Of a stretch of 64,000 nucleotides of DNA, positions 23,401 through 56,894 are shown in pieces. Where the stretch lies: the NCBI GenBank assembly GCA_009838465.1, contig VXRN01000015.1, positions 62,001-126,000 of the forward strand, written 5' to 3'. The stretch comes from Dehalococcoidia bacterium (GTDB lineage: Bacteria > Chloroflexota > Dehalococcoidia > Lucifugimonadales > UBA1123). The translations under genes and the position numbers were made by a program. The notes beneath the pieces were generated by a model. It ran no database searches, was not told where the DNA came from, and saw only the letters and a program-made list of their open reading frames with translations. Each line of letters opens with the position of its first letter. The first letter of the stretch is position 1.

Positions 23401-24498
23401 TTATAGGTGAGGCTGTGTATCGGGTGGTTCACAGAATGGCAATTCCAAGATGTCTAAGTCGCTCTCTATCACGTTCTTCAATTTGAAGGGTATGCACCCG
23501 GTGAAGTTGTCCCGGGAGTGGGATGAATACAGATAGAGGTACTCCAGTCTCCACAGGTCAGTTAGCTCCTCCGGTATCTCGCCCTTTAGCTTGTTTTGGC
23601 TAAGATCCAGGAATTCCAGCTGTCTCAGGTTGCCCATTTCCGGGGGTATTTCTCCGATTAACACGTTCCCGGACAGGTCCAAATAGGATAGGCTAACCAG
23701 GTTGCCCAACTCGGGCGGGATGGTCCCTCGAATGCCGGGATACATGCTAAGGTCCGTCAGTTCGGTCAGGCTGCCCAACTCAGGCGGTATCTTCCCATTG
23801 AGTCCCACACCATACAGCAATAGCTTCACAACTCGCCCGTCCGCGTCCGTGGTTACGCCATGCCAGTGGTCAAGCGGCAGGTCGCTCAGCCAATTGTGGC
23901 GTGAGAGATTCCAAGAATCGCCGCCGGTGGCGTTATAGAAAGCGACAAGCGCAGCCCTATCCCTTTCAGCGGGGTTAATCGCAGCGGGCGAAGGGGATGC
24001 GACGGGCGTGAGAACAACCGTCGGCTCTGAGACCGGTCCTGCTTTTCCGGGTTCGCCCCGGTCGCCCTTATCTCCCTTGGGGCCTTGAGGCCCGGGTTCG
24101 CCACGCTCGCCTTTCTCGCCCTGAAGCCCTTGCTCACCTTGTTCACCTCTTTCGCCGCGCTCACCCTGCTGCCCTGTGTCACCGCGCTCACCTATCGGTC
24201 CGGGTTCACCCTGTGGGCCTCGTTCACCGGTATCACCCTTCTCACCTATCGGTCCGGGTTCGCCCTGTGGGCCTCGTTCACCGGTATCACCCTTCTCACC
24301 TATCGGTCCGGGTTCGCCCTGTGGGCCTCGTTCACCGGTATCGCCCTTCTCGCCTATCGGTCCGGGTTCGCCCTGTGGGCCAGGTGTGGAGTGCTGCTGA
24401 ATTAGCCGAACGACCTCGCTCTCTGATAAGCCGTTCGAACAGGCGAAGCACAGCCCCATGAAGATTATGACCAAACCGGCGATTAACTTGACTCTCAT
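23401..24498 (-). CDS. collagen-like and leucine-rich-repeat surface lipoprotein
   Basis: The 365-residue protein starts with a lipoprotein signal ending at a Cys near residue 20 (LCFAC). Residues about 39-150 are Gly-x-x collagen repeats made largely of the 18-residue unit [18 protein letters not shown]. After a Pro/Val linker come leucine-rich repeats of the plant-like type ([36 protein letters not shown]). It is probably displayed on the cell surface and may bind ligands or other cells. The DNA behind the collagen part is a 54-base tandem repeat, so its length may vary. It has no obvious operon partners. Confidence 0.88.
24191..24382. repeat. 54-base tandem repeat, about 3.6 copies
   Basis: The motif CCTATCGGTCCGGG recurs at 24191, 24245, 24299 and 24353, exactly 54 bases apart. 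It encodes the 18-residue collagen unit on the minus strand, in frame, so copy changes would keep the frame. Copies differ at only a few positions. Confidence 0.9.
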
Positions 24499-28205: not shown

Positions 28206-28221
28206 CCCCGATTCATCGGGG
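28206..28221 (-). terminator. hairpin downstream of the SelW-like gene
   Basis: CCCCGA/TCGGGG with a four-base loop, about 30 bases after the stop codon of the 28541-28251 gene. The minus-strand tail is TCTTTCTC. It could also act for plus-strand transcription because the flank CCTTTTCGCTT is T-rich. Confidence 0.55.
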
Positions 28222-28250: not shown

Positions 28251-28541
28251 TTAGTTGTCGTCGGCTGCTGCGGCGAGAGAGTTGAGCCTGTCCCGTATGA
28301 TTGCGCGCAATTCCTTGACACGGTTGAGATGCGGGGTCTGTCCGTCCTCTTCCTTCTTGTCGTATATCTTGTCGCCGTCAACAAACACCTGCAGGACTCC
28401 ACCCACACCGGGCTTCACCTCGATGGATACTTCACTTCCGCCTTCAGCTACGAACTCGTTGACCATCCAGGCCATGACACCGTGATACTGTCAAGGTACG
28501 CAGTAGATGATCTCAATGTCCATCTTTCCTTCGCCAGCCAT
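28251..28541 (-). CDS. SelW/Rdx-family selenoprotein with in-frame TGA (Sec)
   Basis: The frame from ATG 28541 to TAA 28251 is open except for one TGA (28493-28491), read as residue 17 in the motif YCVPU. That is the CxxU redox motif of SelW/Rdx proteins, and the rest matches them: VKPGVGGVLQVFVDGDKIYDKKEEDG, then an amphipathic C-terminal helix. The ATG is placed eight bases after a strong AGGAGG (28555-28550). Reading from a later ATG would give a 74-residue piece that loses the motif. The product should be a cytoplasmic thiol/selenol redox protein. It would need the cell to make Sec; no sel genes are seen in this window. Confidence 0.8.
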
Positions 28542-28739
28542 TAGACATACCTCCTATGGAGTTTAACCAAACCGAAGATTATACTCAGCATAAATATATA
28601 TTATGCCGAGTATTCCTCATTGCGATTGTAGATTAACACTTATATATCATGCTGTCAATGGCCTCACGCGGCCCGGCGAGGAAATCCGCACGGCTGTATG
28701 ATAACCTCATCCAAGCCGACAAGGAGCCGATAACCGACG

Positions 28740-29936
28740 ATGACCAACTCAGCCGCTCTTGAAGGCGTTAAGGTCCTCGACCTCACCCAGATAATGGCAG
28801 GGCCTTACTGCACGATGATGCTCGCGGACATGGGCGCGGACGTGGTGAAGGTGGAAAAGCCCAACGGGGGCGACGACACACGCCGCATGGGACCTCCGTT
28901 CATCGAGGGTGAGTCGGCGGCGTTTCTGGGTATCAATCGCAACAAGCGCAGCATCGTCGTGGACCTCAGGTCGGACGAAGGCCGTGAGATAGTCATGGAT
29001 ATGGTGCGAAGGTATGACATTCTTGTACAGAACTTTCGACCCGGCTCACTGGAGCGCATGGGACTTGGATACGAACAAGTACGGGAACTCAATCCCGCCA
29101 TGGTGTACTGCACGATCTCCGGGTTCGGGGTTACGGGCCCTTACGCCACTCGCGGCGGCTTCGATCTCGTAACGCAGGGCATGAGCGGACTGATGAGCGT
29201 GACTGGCCACCCGGACAGTCCGCCGACCAAGGTGGGAGTACCTGTGTGTGACCTGAATGCTGGAATGTTCGCCGTCATCGGCATTCTGACCGCGTATATC
29301 AACCGCCTCAAGACCGGAGAAGGGCAGCACGTGGACACATCGTTGCTGGAGGGCGGAATCGCTTACACTTTCTGGGAGTCCGCCATGTATTTCGCCACAG
29401 GAGATGTCCCCGGGCCGAAGGGCAGCGCCCACCGGCTGACGGCTCCGTACCAGGCGTTCGAGACGTCGGACGGGTACGTCAATATCGGCGCGGCGAACCA
29501 GGCCAACTGGGAACGTCTTTGCGCCGCCATTGGACGCGACGAGCTGGTCTCGGATCCCAGGTTCGTAGAACCCAGGGATAGGATGAACAATCTGGACGCA
29601 TTGATTGCGACCCTGGAACAGACCTTCTCGCAGAAGTCATCCGGGTACTGGCTGGACGCGCTTGAAGCCTCGGGCGTGCCAGCGGGCCCGATATACGACA
29701 TTCAGCAGGTTTACGATGACCCTCAGGTACGCGCCAGGGAGATGATAGTCGAGACTGAGCACCCGGTCGCAGGACGTACAAGCAACATTGGGATACCGAT
29801 CAAGCTGTCCGAGACTCCGGGCCTGTTCCAGAGGCCCGCGCCTACACTGGGTCAGCATACCGACGAGGTGCTGAGAGAGTTGGGACGGCCCGACAAGAAA
29901 ATCGCTACTCTGCGCTCGCAGGGAGTTGTCGCCTAG
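28740..29936 (+). CDS. family III (CaiB/BaiF) CoA-transferase 1
   Basis: The 398-residue protein has the full family III core: LDLTQIMAGPYCTMMLADMGADVVKVE near the N-terminus, the catalytic aspartate Asp142 in FDLVTQGMSG and the later VDTSLLEGGIAYTFWES. It should form an interlocked dimer in the cytoplasm and move CoA from a CoA-ester donor to an organic acid. It is the most canonical of the five copies in the window. Substrates cannot be assigned. The start is the ATG at 28740. It is separated from the next copy by 100 bases. Confidence 0.92.
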   Translation: MTNSAALEGVKVLDLTQIMAGPYCTMMLADMGADVVKVEKPNGGDDTRRMGPPFIEGESAAFLGINRNKRSIVVDLRSDEGREIVMDMVRRYDILVQNFRPGSLERMGLGYEQVRELNPAMVYCTISGFGVTGPYATRGGFDLVTQGMSGLMSVTGHPDSPPTKVGVPVCDLNAGMFAVIGILTAYINRLKTGEGQHVDTSLLEGGIAYTFWESAMYFATGDVPGPKGSAHRLTAPYQAFETSDGYVNIGAANQANWERLCAAIGRDELVSDPRFVEPRDRMNNLDALIATLEQTFSQKSSGYWLDALEASGVPAGPIYDIQQVYDDPQVRAREMIVETEHPVAGRTSNIGIPIKLSETPGLFQRPAPTLGQHTDEVLRELGRPDKKIATLRSQGVVA

Positions 29937-30036
29937 CGGTGTCCCCTCGCCAATTCATACGACTCATTCCTGTTGACTACGCTCGCTCGCGGTTATAGGA
30001 TTCCGTAGTTATTCACCAGGCTTGGGGGTAGTCCGT

Positions 30037-31260
30037 ATGCGTAAGCACGCTCTGGAAGGCATTCGTGTCGTAGATTTTTCCTGGATTGTCGCAGGCCCAA
30101 CCTGCACGCGCATCCTGGCGGACTTCGGAGCCGAGGTAATCCGCGTCGAGTTCGAGTACTCCATGGACTACATTCGTGGGGCATACGCGGCCGGGGGAAG
30201 TCCGAACGCGAGCGGGATGTTCAACAACCTGAACCGGAATAAGCTGAGCGCAACGCTGAACGTATTGCACCCGCGCGGCACTGAACTGATTCACGACCTC
30301 ATTTCAGCGTCGGACATCGTGGTCGAGAACTTCAGCGCGTCTGTGCTGGAACGGTGGGGGCTGGACTATGAAGCGCAGCGTTCGATACGGCCCGACGTCA
30401 TATATCTCAGCCTGTCAGGGTTCGGCCACACGGGACGCGACAGGGATTACGTCACATGGGGGCCGACCGCACAGGCTTTGTCGGGCCTGACGTATATGTC
30501 GGGCCTGCCCGGAGAGGAGCCTGCCGGATGGGGGTTCTCCTACATGGACCACACGGCGGGATACTATGGCGCTATGGCCTGTGTCACGGCGCTGCATCAC
30601 CGTAATCGCACCGGGGAGGGTCAGTGGATAGACTTGTCACAGGTCGAATCCGGCATCGCGCTTACGGGAACGGCTATTCTGGACAAGACGGTGAACGGAC
30701 GCCCGTTCAGACGGGAGGGCAACCCGCCCGGCAATCGTTCGCCACATCCGCGTGTCGCTCCTCACAACACGTACCAGTGTAAGGGCGAGGACCAGTGGTG
30801 CGCGATTACCGTATTCGACGACGAGCAGTGGGCTGCGTTCGTCGAGGCTATCGGATCGCCGGAGTGGACAGCCAATCCGAGATTCGAGACCAACGAGGGA
30901 CGCTACGACAACCAGGACGAGTTGGACGAGTTGATAGAGACCTGGACATCGTGCCACACGCCGCATGAAGTGTTCCACAAGTTACAGTCGGCAGGAGTGA
31001 TAGCGGGCGCGGTGCAGTCGCCAAAGATAAAGGTTGACGAAGACCCGCAGCTAAAACACCGGAACTTCCTGCCCGAAATCGAGCACGCTGAACTCGGGAA
31101 AGCAAAGTTCGAGGCCGAGCCGATGCGTCTGTCGCGCTCTCCCTGGGAGCTGCGGCGCGCGTCTCCCCTGATGGGCGAACACAGCGACTATGTATTTGGC
31201 GAGATACTCGGCCTGGATTCGGAAGAGATAGGGGAGTTGATGGTGGAGGGGGTGATATAG
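30037..31260 (+). CDS. family III CoA-transferase 2, catalytic Asp replaced
   Basis: The 407-residue protein is homologous throughout (DFSWIVAGPTCTRILADFGAEVIRVE) but has glycine (Gly142) where copy 1 has Asp142: WGPTAQALSG in place of FDLVTQGMSG. It may be the non-catalytic half of a heteromeric transferase, or use another residue. The ATG at 30037 has a GGGGG site eight bases before it; the longer TTG start at 30022 is less likely. It is followed after 86 bases by copy 3, which retains Asp, and the two could work together. Confidence 0.87.
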   Translation: MRKHALEGIRVVDFSWIVAGPTCTRILADFGAEVIRVEFEYSMDYIRGAYAAGGSPNASGMFNNLNRNKLSATLNVLHPRGTELIHDLISASDIVVENFSASVLERWGLDYEAQRSIRPDVIYLSLSGFGHTGRDRDYVTWGPTAQALSGLTYMSGLPGEEPAGWGFSYMDHTAGYYGAMACVTALHHRNRTGEGQWIDLSQVESGIALTGTAILDKTVNGRPFRREGNPPGNRSPHPRVAPHNTYQCKGEDQWCAITVFDDEQWAAFVEAIGSPEWTANPRFETNEGRYDNQDELDELIETWTSCHTPHEVFHKLQSAGVIAGAVQSPKIKVDEDPQLKHRNFLPEIEHAELGKAKFEAEPMRLSRSPWELRRASPLMGEHSDYVFGEILGLDSEEIGELMVEGVI

Positions 31261-31346
31261 CCACCCGGAAACCAATGTCGAGAATAGAGAGATGCACCAG
31301 ACGGTGATATAACGACCCGAGTACGCTAAGAGGCACGAAAATCCCA

Positions 31347-32603
31347 ATGACCACATCAACCAACTCTGCCCTCTCGGACATCACCATACTTGACCTGTGC
31401 GATGAGAAGGGGCAGCTTATCGGGAAGCTGCTTGGGGAGATGGGGGCGCGCGTCATCAAGGTGGAGCCGCCGGGAGGGGACAGGGCGCGAATAGTAGGAC
31501 CGTTTCGCGGCGACACTCTCGATAGGGAGGGAAGTCTGCATTTCTGGGCGTTCAACACGGCGAAGGAGGGGATCACTCTCGACACTGCCTCGCAGAAGGG
31601 CGCCGAAATGCTCAGGAAGCTGGTCGAGAAGGCCGACGTTTTACTGGAGAGTTACGACCCCGGATACCTCGGCTCACTCGGGCTGGGTTACGATGAACTG
31701 AGCTCTATCAACCCTGCGCTGGTGATGACGTCGCTGACCGGGTTCGGACAGGACGGGCCATATCGAGACTACAAGACGTCGGACCTGGTGGCTATGGCTA
31801 TGGGCGGGATCATGCACAGCTGCGGCTACGACGACCTGCCCGGTTCGCCGCCAATCCGTCCGAGCGGCGGACACGGGTACATTACGGCATCTCACTACGC
31901 CACCATCGGGACCCTCATGGCACTGAACTGGCGAGATATGACTGGAGAAGGGCAGTACGTGGACGCATCCATTCACGAGGCCTGCTCATGCACGACCGAG
32001 GCGGCTATGCCGCTGTACATCTATGGCGGCGATGTGGTACATCGTCAGACCGGCAGGCATCACGGCGCACAGCCTACCCCCAAGACGCTCTGCCCGACGG
32101 TGGACGACAAGTTCATAAACGTGTTCGCGGTGTTCACAAGCCTCAACCAGTGGAAGTCGCTCGTGGCGTGGATGGACTCGGAGGGTATGGCGGAGGACCT
32201 GACCGACGAGAAGTACCTGGACATGGCTACCATGCGCGCCCGCGCGGGCGAAGAGGTGGAACATGCCTTCGAGGTGGTGAAGAAGTTCATAGCCTCGCAT
32301 ACAGCCGAGGAGATATACAGGGGATCCCAGCAGCGTAAATTCCCCTGGGGGATAATTCGCTCGCCGGAGGAGAACCTTGACGACCCGCATTTCCGGGAGG
32401 ATAGGGGCTTCTTTGCGGAAGTAGAGCATCCCGAACTGGGTGAGACATATACGTATGCCGGCCGGCCTTATATCTTCAACAAGACGCCGTGGAGGACGTT
32501 CAGAAGTCCGCTGCTGGGGGAGCATAATCAGTCGGTTTACGGTAAAGACCTTGGGCTGGACGACACAGAGATCGAGCACCTCCGGGAAGAGGGCGTAATC
32601 TGA
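31347..32603 (+). CDS. family III CoA-transferase 3
   Basis: The 418-residue protein keeps the N-terminal LLGEMGARVIKVEPPGGDRAR core and the catalytic aspartate (Asp146 in SDLVAMAMGG). It begins with an unusual 20-residue stretch. It is closest in position to copy 2 and could form a pair with it. The ATG start is clear. Its end lies 17 bases from the convergent copy 4 stop. Substrate unknown. Confidence 0.88.
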   Translation: MTTSTNSALSDITILDLCDEKGQLIGKLLGEMGARVIKVEPPGGDRARIVGPFRGDTLDREGSLHFWAFNTAKEGITLDTASQKGAEMLRKLVEKADVLLESYDPGYLGSLGLGYDELSSINPALVMTSLTGFGQDGPYRDYKTSDLVAMAMGGIMHSCGYDDLPGSPPIRPSGGHGYITASHYATIGTLMALNWRDMTGEGQYVDASIHEACSCTTEAAMPLYIYGGDVVHRQTGRHHGAQPTPKTLCPTVDDKFINVFAVFTSLNQWKSLVAWMDSEGMAEDLTDEKYLDMATMRARAGEEVEHAFEVVKKFIASHTAEEIYRGSQQRKFPWGIIRSPEENLDDPHFREDRGFFAEVEHPELGETYTYAGRPYIFNKTPWRTFRSPLLGEHNQSVYGKDLGLDDTEIEHLREEGVI

Positions 32604-32619
32604 CGGCGCTGCCCGGGGC

Positions 32620-33741
32620 TCAGCGCAGGGGTAGTCCGTCCGTCTGAGGGATAACCCCGTCGGCGCGCATGGCCTCTATCTCATCGTCCGAATGGCCGAG
32701 TTCGGTCAGCACTTCAACAGTGTCGCCACCGAATACAGGGGACGTTCCTGTTCTGACGGGCGTCGCATCCATCTGAGGTGCGGCAGTCCCGTGTTCGACA
32801 CTGCCGAAGAATGGATGATGCTCGGCAACGATGAGGTCGCGCTCGCCATCGCGCGCTTCGTTTCTCACGTCAGCCAGCGTGCGACTGGCGGTGGCGGCTA
32901 TTCCTGCCTCGCTCAGGGACTTCACCCAATCATCGGTGGAGCGTGACGCAAAGATGGGTTCCAGGGTGGAGCGATCACTCAGTTTGGTGAATGGTCCCAG
33001 TGAGTTGAATTTCTCCCTTTCGCCGTCGTTGTTTACTGACAGTGCGAGCCATCCGTCAGCAGTCCGGTATAGTCTGTTGAGGGTGTCGAAGCCCTTGGCT
33101 TCCGGACCACTGACTTCATCCGGCTCGTATCCTTCATAGTCCACCATGTAGGCTGAGGAGAATGTGGAGGCAGTGTAGGCCAGCGAGGTGTCTATCTTCT
33201 GTCCTCTGCCCGTGTGCTCTCGTTCCAGCAGGGCGAGCATCACGCCATAGGCGGCCATGATTCCGGTGCCGTAGTCGTTGAAGGTATATGGAGGCGGGCC
33301 CGGCTGTCCGTCGCCGCCGTTGCGAAGCTGCATACCGGTGGCGGCCTGCGCGTTCTGGTCGAAGCCCGGGCGCATCGCCCAGTCCCCCTCCTGACCGAAG
33401 GCGTTGATGGACGCGTAAACGATGCCAGGGTTGCGCTCACTGAGTTGCTCGTAACCAATGCCCAGACGCTCGGCAACGCCTTTCCGGAATCCCTGCAAGA
33501 GGACGTCGGAGGTGTCGGCGAGGCGGTAGAACGCTTCAAGGCCGGCGTCTCTGGTGATATTCAGGCAGATACTGCGCTTGCCTCGTCCCACATCGAGCCA
33601 GGGGGTCAGGCCGGGAACGCGGTGTTCGGGATCGACCTTGATGACTTCGGCGCCGTATTCGGACAGCGTTCTGCCGCAGGTCGGTCCCGCGAGGATGATG
33701 CAGAGGTCGAGGACTCGTATTCCTTCCAAGGCTCCGGGCAT
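32620..33741 (-). CDS. family III CoA-transferase 4
   Basis: The 373-residue protein starts MPGALEGIRVLDLCIILAGPTCGRTL and keeps the catalytic aspartate (Asp128 in GFDQNAQAATG). I take the ATG at 33741 instead of the longer in-frame start at 33864, which would overlap copy 5 by over 100 bases. It lies four bases after the copy 5 stop codon, so the two are translationally linked. Confidence 0.88.
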   Translation of the reverse strand: MPGALEGIRVLDLCIILAGPTCGRTLSEYGAEVIKVDPEHRVPGLTPWLDVGRGKRSICLNITRDAGLEAFYRLADTSDVLLQGFRKGVAERLGIGYEQLSERNPGIVYASINAFGQEGDWAMRPGFDQNAQAATGMQLRNGGDGQPGPPPYTFNDYGTGIMAAYGVMLALLEREHTGRGQKIDTSLAYTASTFSSAYMVDYEGYEPDEVSGPEAKGFDTLNRLYRTADGWLALSVNNDGEREKFNSLGPFTKLSDRSTLEPIFASRSTDDWVKSLSEAGIAATASRTLADVRNEARDGERDLIVAEHHPFFGSVEHGTAAPQMDATPVRTGTSPVFGGDTVEVLTELGHSDDEIEAMRADGVIPQTDGLPLR

Positions 33742-33745
33742 GGTT

Positions 33746-34837
33746 CTACCTTTCTCGTTCGTTTGAATCCGCGATGCGCTGTCCGAGAATGGGAGCCGCG
33801 CCGCGTATAGAACCGGGTGTGTCTTCCAGCCTGACCTGTATTCCGACCTGGCGCATCGGGCCATAGACGGGATCGTCGAGCTTCACGACCGCGCCAGACT
33901 GCCATGCGTGGTCGGTCTCCATCCACTCCTGGAGTGTGCGGCACATAGTGAGGGGCACACCCACATCTTCCATCACGTCTTCCCATTCAGTCGCCGGCTT
34001 TTGCAGCCACACCTCGGCGAAACGGGCGGCCCATTCCTCGCGTTCCTCGATATTGGCGCGCAGGCGTTCGTCGGTGAGCGCGTCGTACCAATCGGGATGG
34101 CCCATCGCGGTGAGCATGGGTCTTAGCGAACGCTCGTAGCTGGCGTTCAGGTTCACCCAGCGGTCGTCGGCGCAGCGGTAGAAGCGGGCTATGGCCGGAG
34201 ACAGCGCGCCGGGACCGGCCGGAACGTCCGGCCTTCGGACGATAGCCGATCCCATCGCGGTGAACATAGAATCGTACAACGGGACCACGACAGACTGGCC
34301 CTCGCCGCTTCTCTCCCTGTGGAACAGGGCGGCGGTTATCGCCGGGGCGGCCACCATAGCTCCGAAGATGCTTGCGTATGGCAGGGCAATGAAGCTCGCG
34401 CCCTCTGAGCCGTCCGCGCTTCGGTCAGCATACACGCCCGTCGCGGCGGATACGATGAGTTCGCTCGCGGTTGCATTCCCGTCCTGGGAGATCCCCGGAA
34501 TACAGAGATGAATGATATCGGGCTTCTCGTTCCGGGCCGTATCGTAGTCAATCCCGTAGGGGTTGGTCCCTGAGTCGAACCCCTCGATCACCACGTCGGA
34601 CTCTCGCATGAGTCCTTGCAAGCCGCATCTGTCCTTGTTGCTCTGAGGGTCGGCTACGAGGGAGTTCTTGCCTCGATTCCAGACAGAGAACACAGGGGTA
34701 CCGCGCAGAGGGTCTCCCTCAGGCCGCTCGACCTTGACGATGTCCGCGCCCTGGTCGGCGAGCAGCATACCCAGGACGGCTACCGCCGGCTGGTCTCCGA
34801 GTTCAACTATCCGGTACCGAGAGAGCGCGCCTGACAA
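33746..34837 (-). CDS. family III CoA-transferase 5, Asp replaced by Glu
   Basis: The 363-residue protein has the family core LLADQGADIVKVERPEGD but is the most divergent copy. The position of the catalytic aspartate is glutamate (Glu126 in SELIVSAATG), so it may be inactive or altered. The start is a TTG at 34837 with a GAGGTGA site. It is co-transcribed with copy 4, which keeps Asp. Confidence 0.82.
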   Translation of the reverse strand: MSGALSRYRIVELGDQPAVAVLGMLLADQGADIVKVERPEGDPLRGTPVFSVWNRGKNSLVADPQSNKDRCGLQGLMRESDVVIEGFDSGTNPYGIDYDTARNEKPDIIHLCIPGISQDGNATASELIVSAATGVYADRSADGSEGASFIALPYASIFGAMVAAPAITAALFHRERSGEGQSVVVPLYDSMFTAMGSAIVRRPDVPAGPGALSPAIARFYRCADDRWVNLNASYERSLRPMLTAMGHPDWYDALTDERLRANIEEREEWAARFAEVWLQKPATEWEDVMEDVGVPLTMCRTLQEWMETDHAWQSGAVVKLDDPVYGPMRQVGIQVRLEDTPGSIRGAAPILGQRIADSNERER

Positions 34838-53053: not shown

Positions 53054-53134
53054 CGAGTCATCGCTGCCTGCGAATCCCGGAGTTTGCCGGATGACTTGCA
53101 GGCATGGAAGCGCTCCCATCAGCGAGAAGCCAAC

Positions 53135-53300
53135 TTCCAACACGCGGGACAGGTATCCTGACTTACGGGTCTTCACGTCGGCGACGCCTTCCCGGTCCTC
53201 GGACCAGTGGCAAATGTCGCGACGCTACCCAATCACAGTGGCGCGTCCGTGGGAGACTCTCACTCCCTTCCCTGCGTTCCTGCGTATTAGATATTGAAAT
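53135..53300 (-). promoter_or_regulatory. cobalamin riboswitch controlling cobN operon
   Basis: Read on the minus strand, the leader has the conserved elements GCCACTG (twice), GGGAAGG, GTGAAGACC and the B12 box GTCAGGATACCTG (53162-53150). This is the typical adenosylcobalamin aptamer order. It is followed by an intrinsic terminator at 53011-53053 and then cobN. High cobalamin should therefore stop expression of the whole synthesis and cobalt-import operon. Confidence 0.95.
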
Positions 53301-56621: not shown

Positions 56622-56704
56622 CGCATCGTCTCTGACCTAACTCCTCTTCTGAGGAGAATCGGCACAAAACTGAGGCGCTCCCTAAGACGAAGAGCGGCTA
56701 ATCA

Positions 56705-56880
56705 GCCCTACCCGGCAGGTCTCCTGGCTCTCGGATCGTCGCCTGTCCCGCGCCTTCCCATCCAAATGGACAGTGGCTACAGCGGGGCGGCTACCCGATT
56801 ACAGTGGCGCCTCCGCAGCGGATTCTCACCGCTTTCCCTATTCGCGCTGGGCTTTCCAGCGCACCAAGTTGGGTTGGCCT
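56705..56880 (-). promoter_or_regulatory. cobalamin riboswitch controlling btuCFD
   Basis: On the minus strand: GGTGAGAATCCGC, GCGCCACTGTAATCGGG, GCCACTG, GGGAAGGCG and the B12-box-like GAGCCAGGAGACCTGCC, in the standard order of a cobalamin aptamer. It differs from the 53 kb copy in the B12 box, which is less perfect. It is followed by a terminator and btuC. Cobalamin should shut off corrinoid import. Confidence 0.95.
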
Positions 56881-56894
56881 AAATAACTGGCGCG

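What the first reader, a model, noticed from the sequence alone, without database searches (positions are those of the whole stretch)
28251..28541. Probable selenoprotein: SelW-like gene with a TGA in the CxxU motif
The best start (ATG with AGGAGG eight bases upstream) gives one frame interrupted only by TGA at codon 17, in the exact position of Sec in SelW/Rdx proteins (YCVPU), and the remainder matches the family. A TGACA/TGTCA stem (28493-28475) sits right at the TGA and could be part of a bacterial SECIS. If read as a stop, the gene would lose its active site.
Basis: partly seen in the sequence, partly recalled or inferred. Interest (0 to 1): 0.7.

Follow-up and report, generated by a model that had tools for sequence, protein, structure and literature searches.

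The report
Selenocysteine-containing SelW-like redox protein gene
An uncultured bacterium uses the rare amino acid selenocysteine in the active site of a small thioredoxin-like protein of the known SelW family, so the apparent stop codon in this gene is really a selenocysteine codon; this is well supported but ordinary.

Summary
The finding is right. Window 28251-28541 (minus strand) encodes a 96-residue Rdx/SelW-family protein whose single in-frame TGA (28493-28491) falls on the second redox residue of the C-x-x-U motif. The host genome holds tRNA-Sec, SelA, SelB and SelD; SelD itself and a second Rdx gene also carry a TGA at the expected site. In 147 related genomes, 143 of 144 Rdx matches reach this residue: 120 have TGA, 23 have a Cys codon, none anything else. 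A bacterial SECIS hairpin lies 21 nt after the TGA (stem 28474-28470/28464-28460, loop UGGAU). It shows compensatory changes, also at pairs whose two sides are both third codon positions, and is mostly lost in Cys copies. SelW-like CxxU proteins are the commonest selenoproteins in published marine metagenome surveys, so this is a new member of a known kind. Selenocysteine insertion itself is inferred, not measured. The cellular substrate is unknown; a thiol/selenol redox role is inferred from family and fold.

The parts
28251..28541 (-). selW-like (Rdx) selenoprotein gene, 96 codons plus TAA, TGA at codon 17 read as selenocysteine
   Evidence: translation with TGA=U; Pfam PF10262 E 2.3e-12; TIGR02174; fold match to SelW crystal/NMR structures
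28491..28493 (-). selenocysteine UGA codon (residue 17 of C14-V-P-U17)
   Evidence: TGA in 120 and Cys codon in 23 of 143 copies
28460..28474 (-). bacterial SECIS apical hairpin UGGCC-UGGAU-GGUCA, loop 21 nt after the UGA
   Evidence: covariation in alignments A1 and A2; excess over synonymous randomisations; lost in most Cys copies
28550..28555 (-). AGGAGG Shine-Dalgarno sequence, 8 bases before the ATG
   Evidence: sequence; similar purine-rich sites precede many relatives
28475..28493 (-).
28206..28221 (-). probable terminator hairpin after the gene (inference)
   Evidence: CCCCGATGAATCGGGG followed by a T-rich run on the minus strand; the scan listed this palindrome on the plus strand only

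Best explanation
This is a genuine selenoprotein gene of the SelW/Rdx family in an uncultured Dehalococcoidia (SAR202-type Chloroflexota) genome. SelD makes selenophosphate, SelA converts Ser-tRNA-Sec to Sec-tRNA-Sec, and SelB brings it to the ribosome when bound to the bSECIS hairpin 21 nt downstream of the UGA, so that UGA 17 is read as selenocysteine. The product is a small thioredoxin-fold protein with a C-V-P-U motif at the end of the first strand. It most likely exchanges electrons with thiol/disulfide or glutathione-like partners. Shown by computation: gene, family, fold, machinery, conservation, SECIS covariation. Inferred from established knowledge: the roles of SelA/B/C/D and the redox function.
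For: Family and fold: (AF2 mean pLDDT 91.4; the top 22 PDB matches are SelW/Rdx chains, mouse SelW 2npb among them with TMq 0.76). Machinery in the same assembly: tRNA-Sec 66.2 bits (ARAGORN tRNA-SeC tca), SelB 334.7 bits, SelA 536.6 bits, SelD 384 bits with one TGA read as CAGU. A second Rdx gene with TGA, CQHU. In the single-contig same-genus genome G003, tRNA-Sec, selB and the TGA-Rdx gene lie on one contig, which answers the worry about bin contamination. Site conservation 143 of 143. SECIS: 82.1% of pair cells against 65.2% shuffled, covariation score 0.533 against 0.228, 0 of 500 shuffles reach either. Synonymous randomisation: 36 of 42 thinned Sec genes meet the hairpin criterion against 19.0 +/- 3.1, 0 of 200. 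112 of 120 Sec copies against 5 of 23 Cys copies pair fully in one of two registers. Three of the four matching genomes that show neither tRNA-Sec nor SelB have only Cys copies.
Against: No protein data. The hairpin of this one sequence is not unusually stable: z -0.33 for the 40-nt stretch, and -6.1 kcal/mol for the apical hairpin alone; the case rests on comparison. One genome with TGA-Rdx shows neither tRNA-Sec nor SelB (G093, about 620 contigs), and 16 others with a TGA copy lack one of the two in these searches, most plausibly because of incomplete bins and strict filters. Seven Cys-only genomes have the machinery, so a Cys copy does not track loss of the trait strictly.
Confidence: 0.97

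Rival explanations
1. Pseudogene or sequencing error: a Cys codon (TGC/TGT) misread or mutated to TGA, giving a dead gene.
For: A single base change would do it; the source is a draft assembly in 75 contigs.
Against: TGA at the identical residue in 120 of 143 copies in 105 genomes; conserved C-terminal part; SECIS covariation.
Confidence: 0.01
2. TGA is a true stop and translation restarts at ATG 28475 (74 aa), giving a protein without the CxxU motif.
For: The 74-aa ORF from ATG 28475 is open.
Against: That Met (residue 23) is Ala in at least 90% of the 42 aligned proteins, and the YC motif upstream of the TGA is invariant there.
Confidence: 0.01
3. General UGA reassignment (for example to Trp or Gly) rather than selenocysteine.
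For: None found.
Against: Neighbouring genes are open under table 11; the site corresponds to Cys, not Trp or Gly, in homologues; the full Sec machinery is present.
Confidence: 0.005

Closest known systems
SelW-like bacterial selenoproteins of marine metagenomes (Sargasso Sea, PMC1088965; GOS, PMC2398784)
   Same: CxxU motif, SelW family, bacterial SECIS directly after the UGA; [quoted passage not shown]
   Different: Nothing essential; here the gene is tied to Dehalococcoidia/SAR202-type genomes with their complete Sec machinery. A term search of PMC2398784 for SAR202 and Dehalococcoides found neither.
Rdx proteins of solved structure (2oka, 2obk, 2fa8, 2p0g, 3dex) and mouse SelW (2npb)
   Same: Same fold and sequence family
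   Different: The two bacterial ones shown residue by residue, 2oka and 3dex, carry Cys at the site; here Sec.

Membership tests
Rdx / SelW family (PF10262, TIGR02174) | Profile match over the curated cut-off | tested here: met
   47.4 bits vs 22.6; 36.1 vs 34.2
Rdx / SelW family (PF10262, TIGR02174) | CxxC/CxxU motif after the first strand, thioredoxin-like fold | tested here: met
   C14-V-P-U17; AF2 model and Foldseek, top 22 are SelW/Rdx chains
Rdx / SelW family (PF10262, TIGR02174) | Redox activity with thiol partners | not testable with these tools
   needs biochemistry
Bacterial selenoprotein | tRNA-Sec, SelA, SelB, SelD in the genome | tested here: met
Bacterial selenoprotein | UGA aligned with Cys of homologues | tested here: met
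   120 TGA, 23 Cys, 0 other of 143
bSECIS model (PMC13188914, figure legend) | Apical loop 3-9 nt, upper stem 4-16 bp | tested here: met
   5-nt loop UGGAU, 5-bp stem
bSECIS model (PMC13188914, figure legend) | G among the first two loop bases; 16-37 nt between UGA and loop | tested here: met
   UG; 21 nt
bSECIS model (PMC13188914, figure legend) | Minimum free energy at most -7.5 kcal/mol | tested here: inconclusive
   -10.3 for 40 nt, but that includes the unconserved TGACA stem; the apical hairpin alone is -6.1
Bacterial selenoprotein | Selenium actually incorporated | not testable with these tools
   needs 75Se labelling or mass spectrometry

The most novel reading that the evidence does not exclude
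In this order the SelW recoding hairpin has been rebuilt in at least three registers around the same codons: paired-position sums 54 and 51, and a 3-nt-loop form in copies where the loop Trp has become Ser. If so, the RNA element as well as the protein may have guided which residues follow the active site, including Trp25 and its replacement by Ser.
Probability: 0.4. Interest if true: 0.35.

Novelty: new member of a known kind. Interest (0 to 1): 0.2.

Why it matters
Annotation pipelines that read TGA as stop would truncate or miss this gene. The set gives a large, clean natural series (120 Sec and 23 Cys copies) for studying how bacterial SECIS elements and codon choice evolve together. It also adds a phylogenetic home, SAR202-type Dehalococcoidia, for part of the marine SelW-like pool; that last point is inference.

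Tried and rejected
Rejected: the TGACA/TGTCA stem as the SECIS. A second tRNA-Sec-like hit in some genomes as an extra recoding tRNA: the one checked, G107 (L146), is tRNA-Ser gct. Taking the stops_inside column at face value: it also counts terminal stops (L052 is YCVPC with a TGA counted), so I read every codon in the DNA. A fixed operon partner: neighbours are kept in the same-genus locus L058 but not in L059 or L061. PDB sequence hits to Hax3/dHax3 have no stretch that passes on its own and are taken as spurious; nothing of them was fetched. Rfam has no match in this gene region (gathering search). A single-sequence AF2 run was poor (pLDDT 60.1) and was replaced by the alignment run. No paper in the held library contains both 'SAR202' and 'selenoprotein'; this covers open-licence PMC only.

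Limits: the 42-row alignment A1 was thinned at 85% identity from the 91 distinct Sec rows then in hand, with the paralogue L026 left out; the last 33 fetched loci are not in it. A2 (28 rows) was chosen by best fit to one register, so its 99.1% is biased upward; A1 is the fair figure. Three rows sorted into register B (L079, L100, L119) look more like register A with a bulge. Cys copies are slightly above chance in some measures (8 of 13 against 5.4 +/- 1.5, 12 of 200 reach it; thinned MFE -8.4 against -6.2, 4 of 200 reach it), which may be residual hairpin or base composition. The 144 rows were counted by hand.

Full report
What is there. The minus strand at 28541-28251 reads, with TGA as U, as a 96-residue protein beginning MAGEGKMDIEIIYCVPUQYHGVMAW. 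It has an AGGAGG 8 bases before the ATG and a TAA stop. It matches Pfam Rdx at 47.4 bits (cut-off 22.6) and NCBIfam TIGR02174 CXXU_selWTH at 36.1 (cut-off 34.2). phmmer finds solved Rdx/SelW proteins, 2oka best at 1.6e-8. An AlphaFold2 model from 42 window and locus sequences has mean pLDDT 91.4. Its 22 Foldseek matches in the PDB at E up to 0.001 are SelW/Rdx chains, including mouse SelW 2npb with TMq 0.76; thioredoxins follow.

Organism. The nearest named records are uncultured Dehalococcoidia, Chloroflexi and a SAR202-cluster bin (5 loci, 67-95% identity). L058 has the same contig coordinates as the match in the same-genus genome G002.

Machinery. In the window's own assembly (94.3% complete, 6.4% contamination): tRNA-Sec at C23 with 66.2 bits against a cut-off of 47, which ARAGORN calls tRNA-SeC tca; SelA on the same contig, 536.6 bits; SelB on C54, 334.7 bits; SelD on C12, 384 bits, with one in-frame TGA read as LASCAGU and a hairpin after it. 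A second Rdx gene on C42 has LEYCQHUGH. Since the bin carries some contamination, the single-contig same-genus genome G003 is the better witness: tRNA-Sec, selB and the TGA-Rdx gene are all on its one contig.

Conservation of the site. Among 147 related genomes, 105 have a match to the protein. The listing holds 144 rows by my count; 143 copies reach residue 17 (one, L169, is a fragment at a contig end). I read the codon in each: 120 TGA, 15 TGC, 8 TGT, no other. tRNA-Sec was found in 128 of 147 genomes (E up to 1e-9, stricter filters) and SelB in 134 of 147 (E up to 1e-60; 132 over the cut-off). Of the 105 genomes with a match, 85 have only Sec copies (71 with both tRNA-Sec and SelB found, 13 with one, 1 with neither), 10 have both kinds (7 with both parts, 3 with one), and 10 have only Cys copies (7 with both parts, 3 with neither). 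Having at least one of the two parts goes with having a Sec copy: 94 of 95 genomes with a Sec copy against 7 of 10 without, Fisher p 0.0024; relatedness is not corrected for. The single Sec genome with neither part, G093, is in about 620 contigs. The three matching Cys-only genomes without machinery are G034, G059 and G063.

The SECIS element. The hairpin UGGCC-UGGAU-GGUCA lies at 28474-28460, its loop 21 nt after the UGA, with G in the second loop position. This meets the length, loop-G and spacing rules of the published bSECIS model (legend passage of PMC13188914). On 42 thinned Sec genes the four core pairs form in 82.1% of cells against 65.2 +/- 2.1 in column shuffles; the covariation score is 0.533 against 0.228, with 0 of 500 shuffles reaching either, and slid versions reach at most 57.1%. 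In the register subset of 28 rows the figure is 99.1% (chosen by fit, so biased). The pairs of columns 21-33 and 24-30 join third codon positions on both sides and still change together (GC, CG, UA, AU at 21-33; CG, UA, GC at 24-30), which protein constraint cannot easily explain. When codons are redrawn synonymously, 19.0 +/- 3.1 of 42 genes keep such a hairpin against 36 observed, and none of 200 redraws reaches it. A second register (for example CGCCA-CGUGGA-UGGCG) serves other families. Over all copies, 112 of 120 Sec genes and 5 of 23 Cys genes pair fully in one of the two registers; most of the 8 Sec exceptions read like the same stem with a bulge. In seven Sec copies Trp25 (TGG in the loop) is AGT, Ser; the folds of all seven show a stem of 6-8 bp with a 3-nt loop that begins GU.

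Against the reading. The window's own hairpin alone is not unusually stable (z -0.33 for 40 nt). Seven Cys-only genomes keep the machinery, and 16 genomes with a Sec copy lack one machinery part in these searches. There are no protein data.

How it works. By established knowledge of the Sel pathway, SelB with Sec-tRNA-Sec binds the hairpin and inserts selenocysteine at UGA 17. The C-x-x-U pair on a thioredoxin-like fold suggests a selenenylsulfide redox cycle. PMC1088965 notes that the motif suggests a redox function and that the protein was found to interact with glutathione (passage). The physiological partner is unknown; neighbours are not conserved beyond the genus in the three loci examined.

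Known or new. SelW-like CxxU proteins were the most abundant family in the Sargasso Sea (48 genes) and, with SelD, the most widespread in GOS (427 sequences). This gene is an ordinary new member. I found no paper in the held library with both SAR202 and selenoprotein, so the taxonomic assignment may be unreported there, but that is a small point. Papers were seen as follows: PMC2398784, PMC1794560, PMC1088965 and PMC13188914 as passages; all others as search listings only.

Noticed in passing
28740-33864: Four CoA-transferase family III genes (PF02515) lie within about 5 kb.
   Followed up: partly
23401-24498: Protein with collagen-like G-x-y repeats followed by leucine-rich repeats.
   Followed up: partly
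53130-53298 and 56697-56883: Two cobalamin riboswitches on the minus strand, 3.4 kb apart.
   Followed up: no
L021 1477-2535: SelD of the same genome is itself a selenoprotein (CAGU) with a hairpin after the TGA.
   Followed up: partly
L026 1483-1740: Second Rdx selenoprotein gene, CQHU motif, in the same genome.
   Followed up: partly
L076 and L124: Sec and Cys forms of Rdx sit in tandem in genomes G108 and G089, a possible snapshot of Sec/Cys exchange.
   Followed up: partly
L149, L153, L161, L162, L166, L167, L179: Copies with Trp25 changed to Ser carry a recoding stem with a 3-nt loop.
   Followed up: partly
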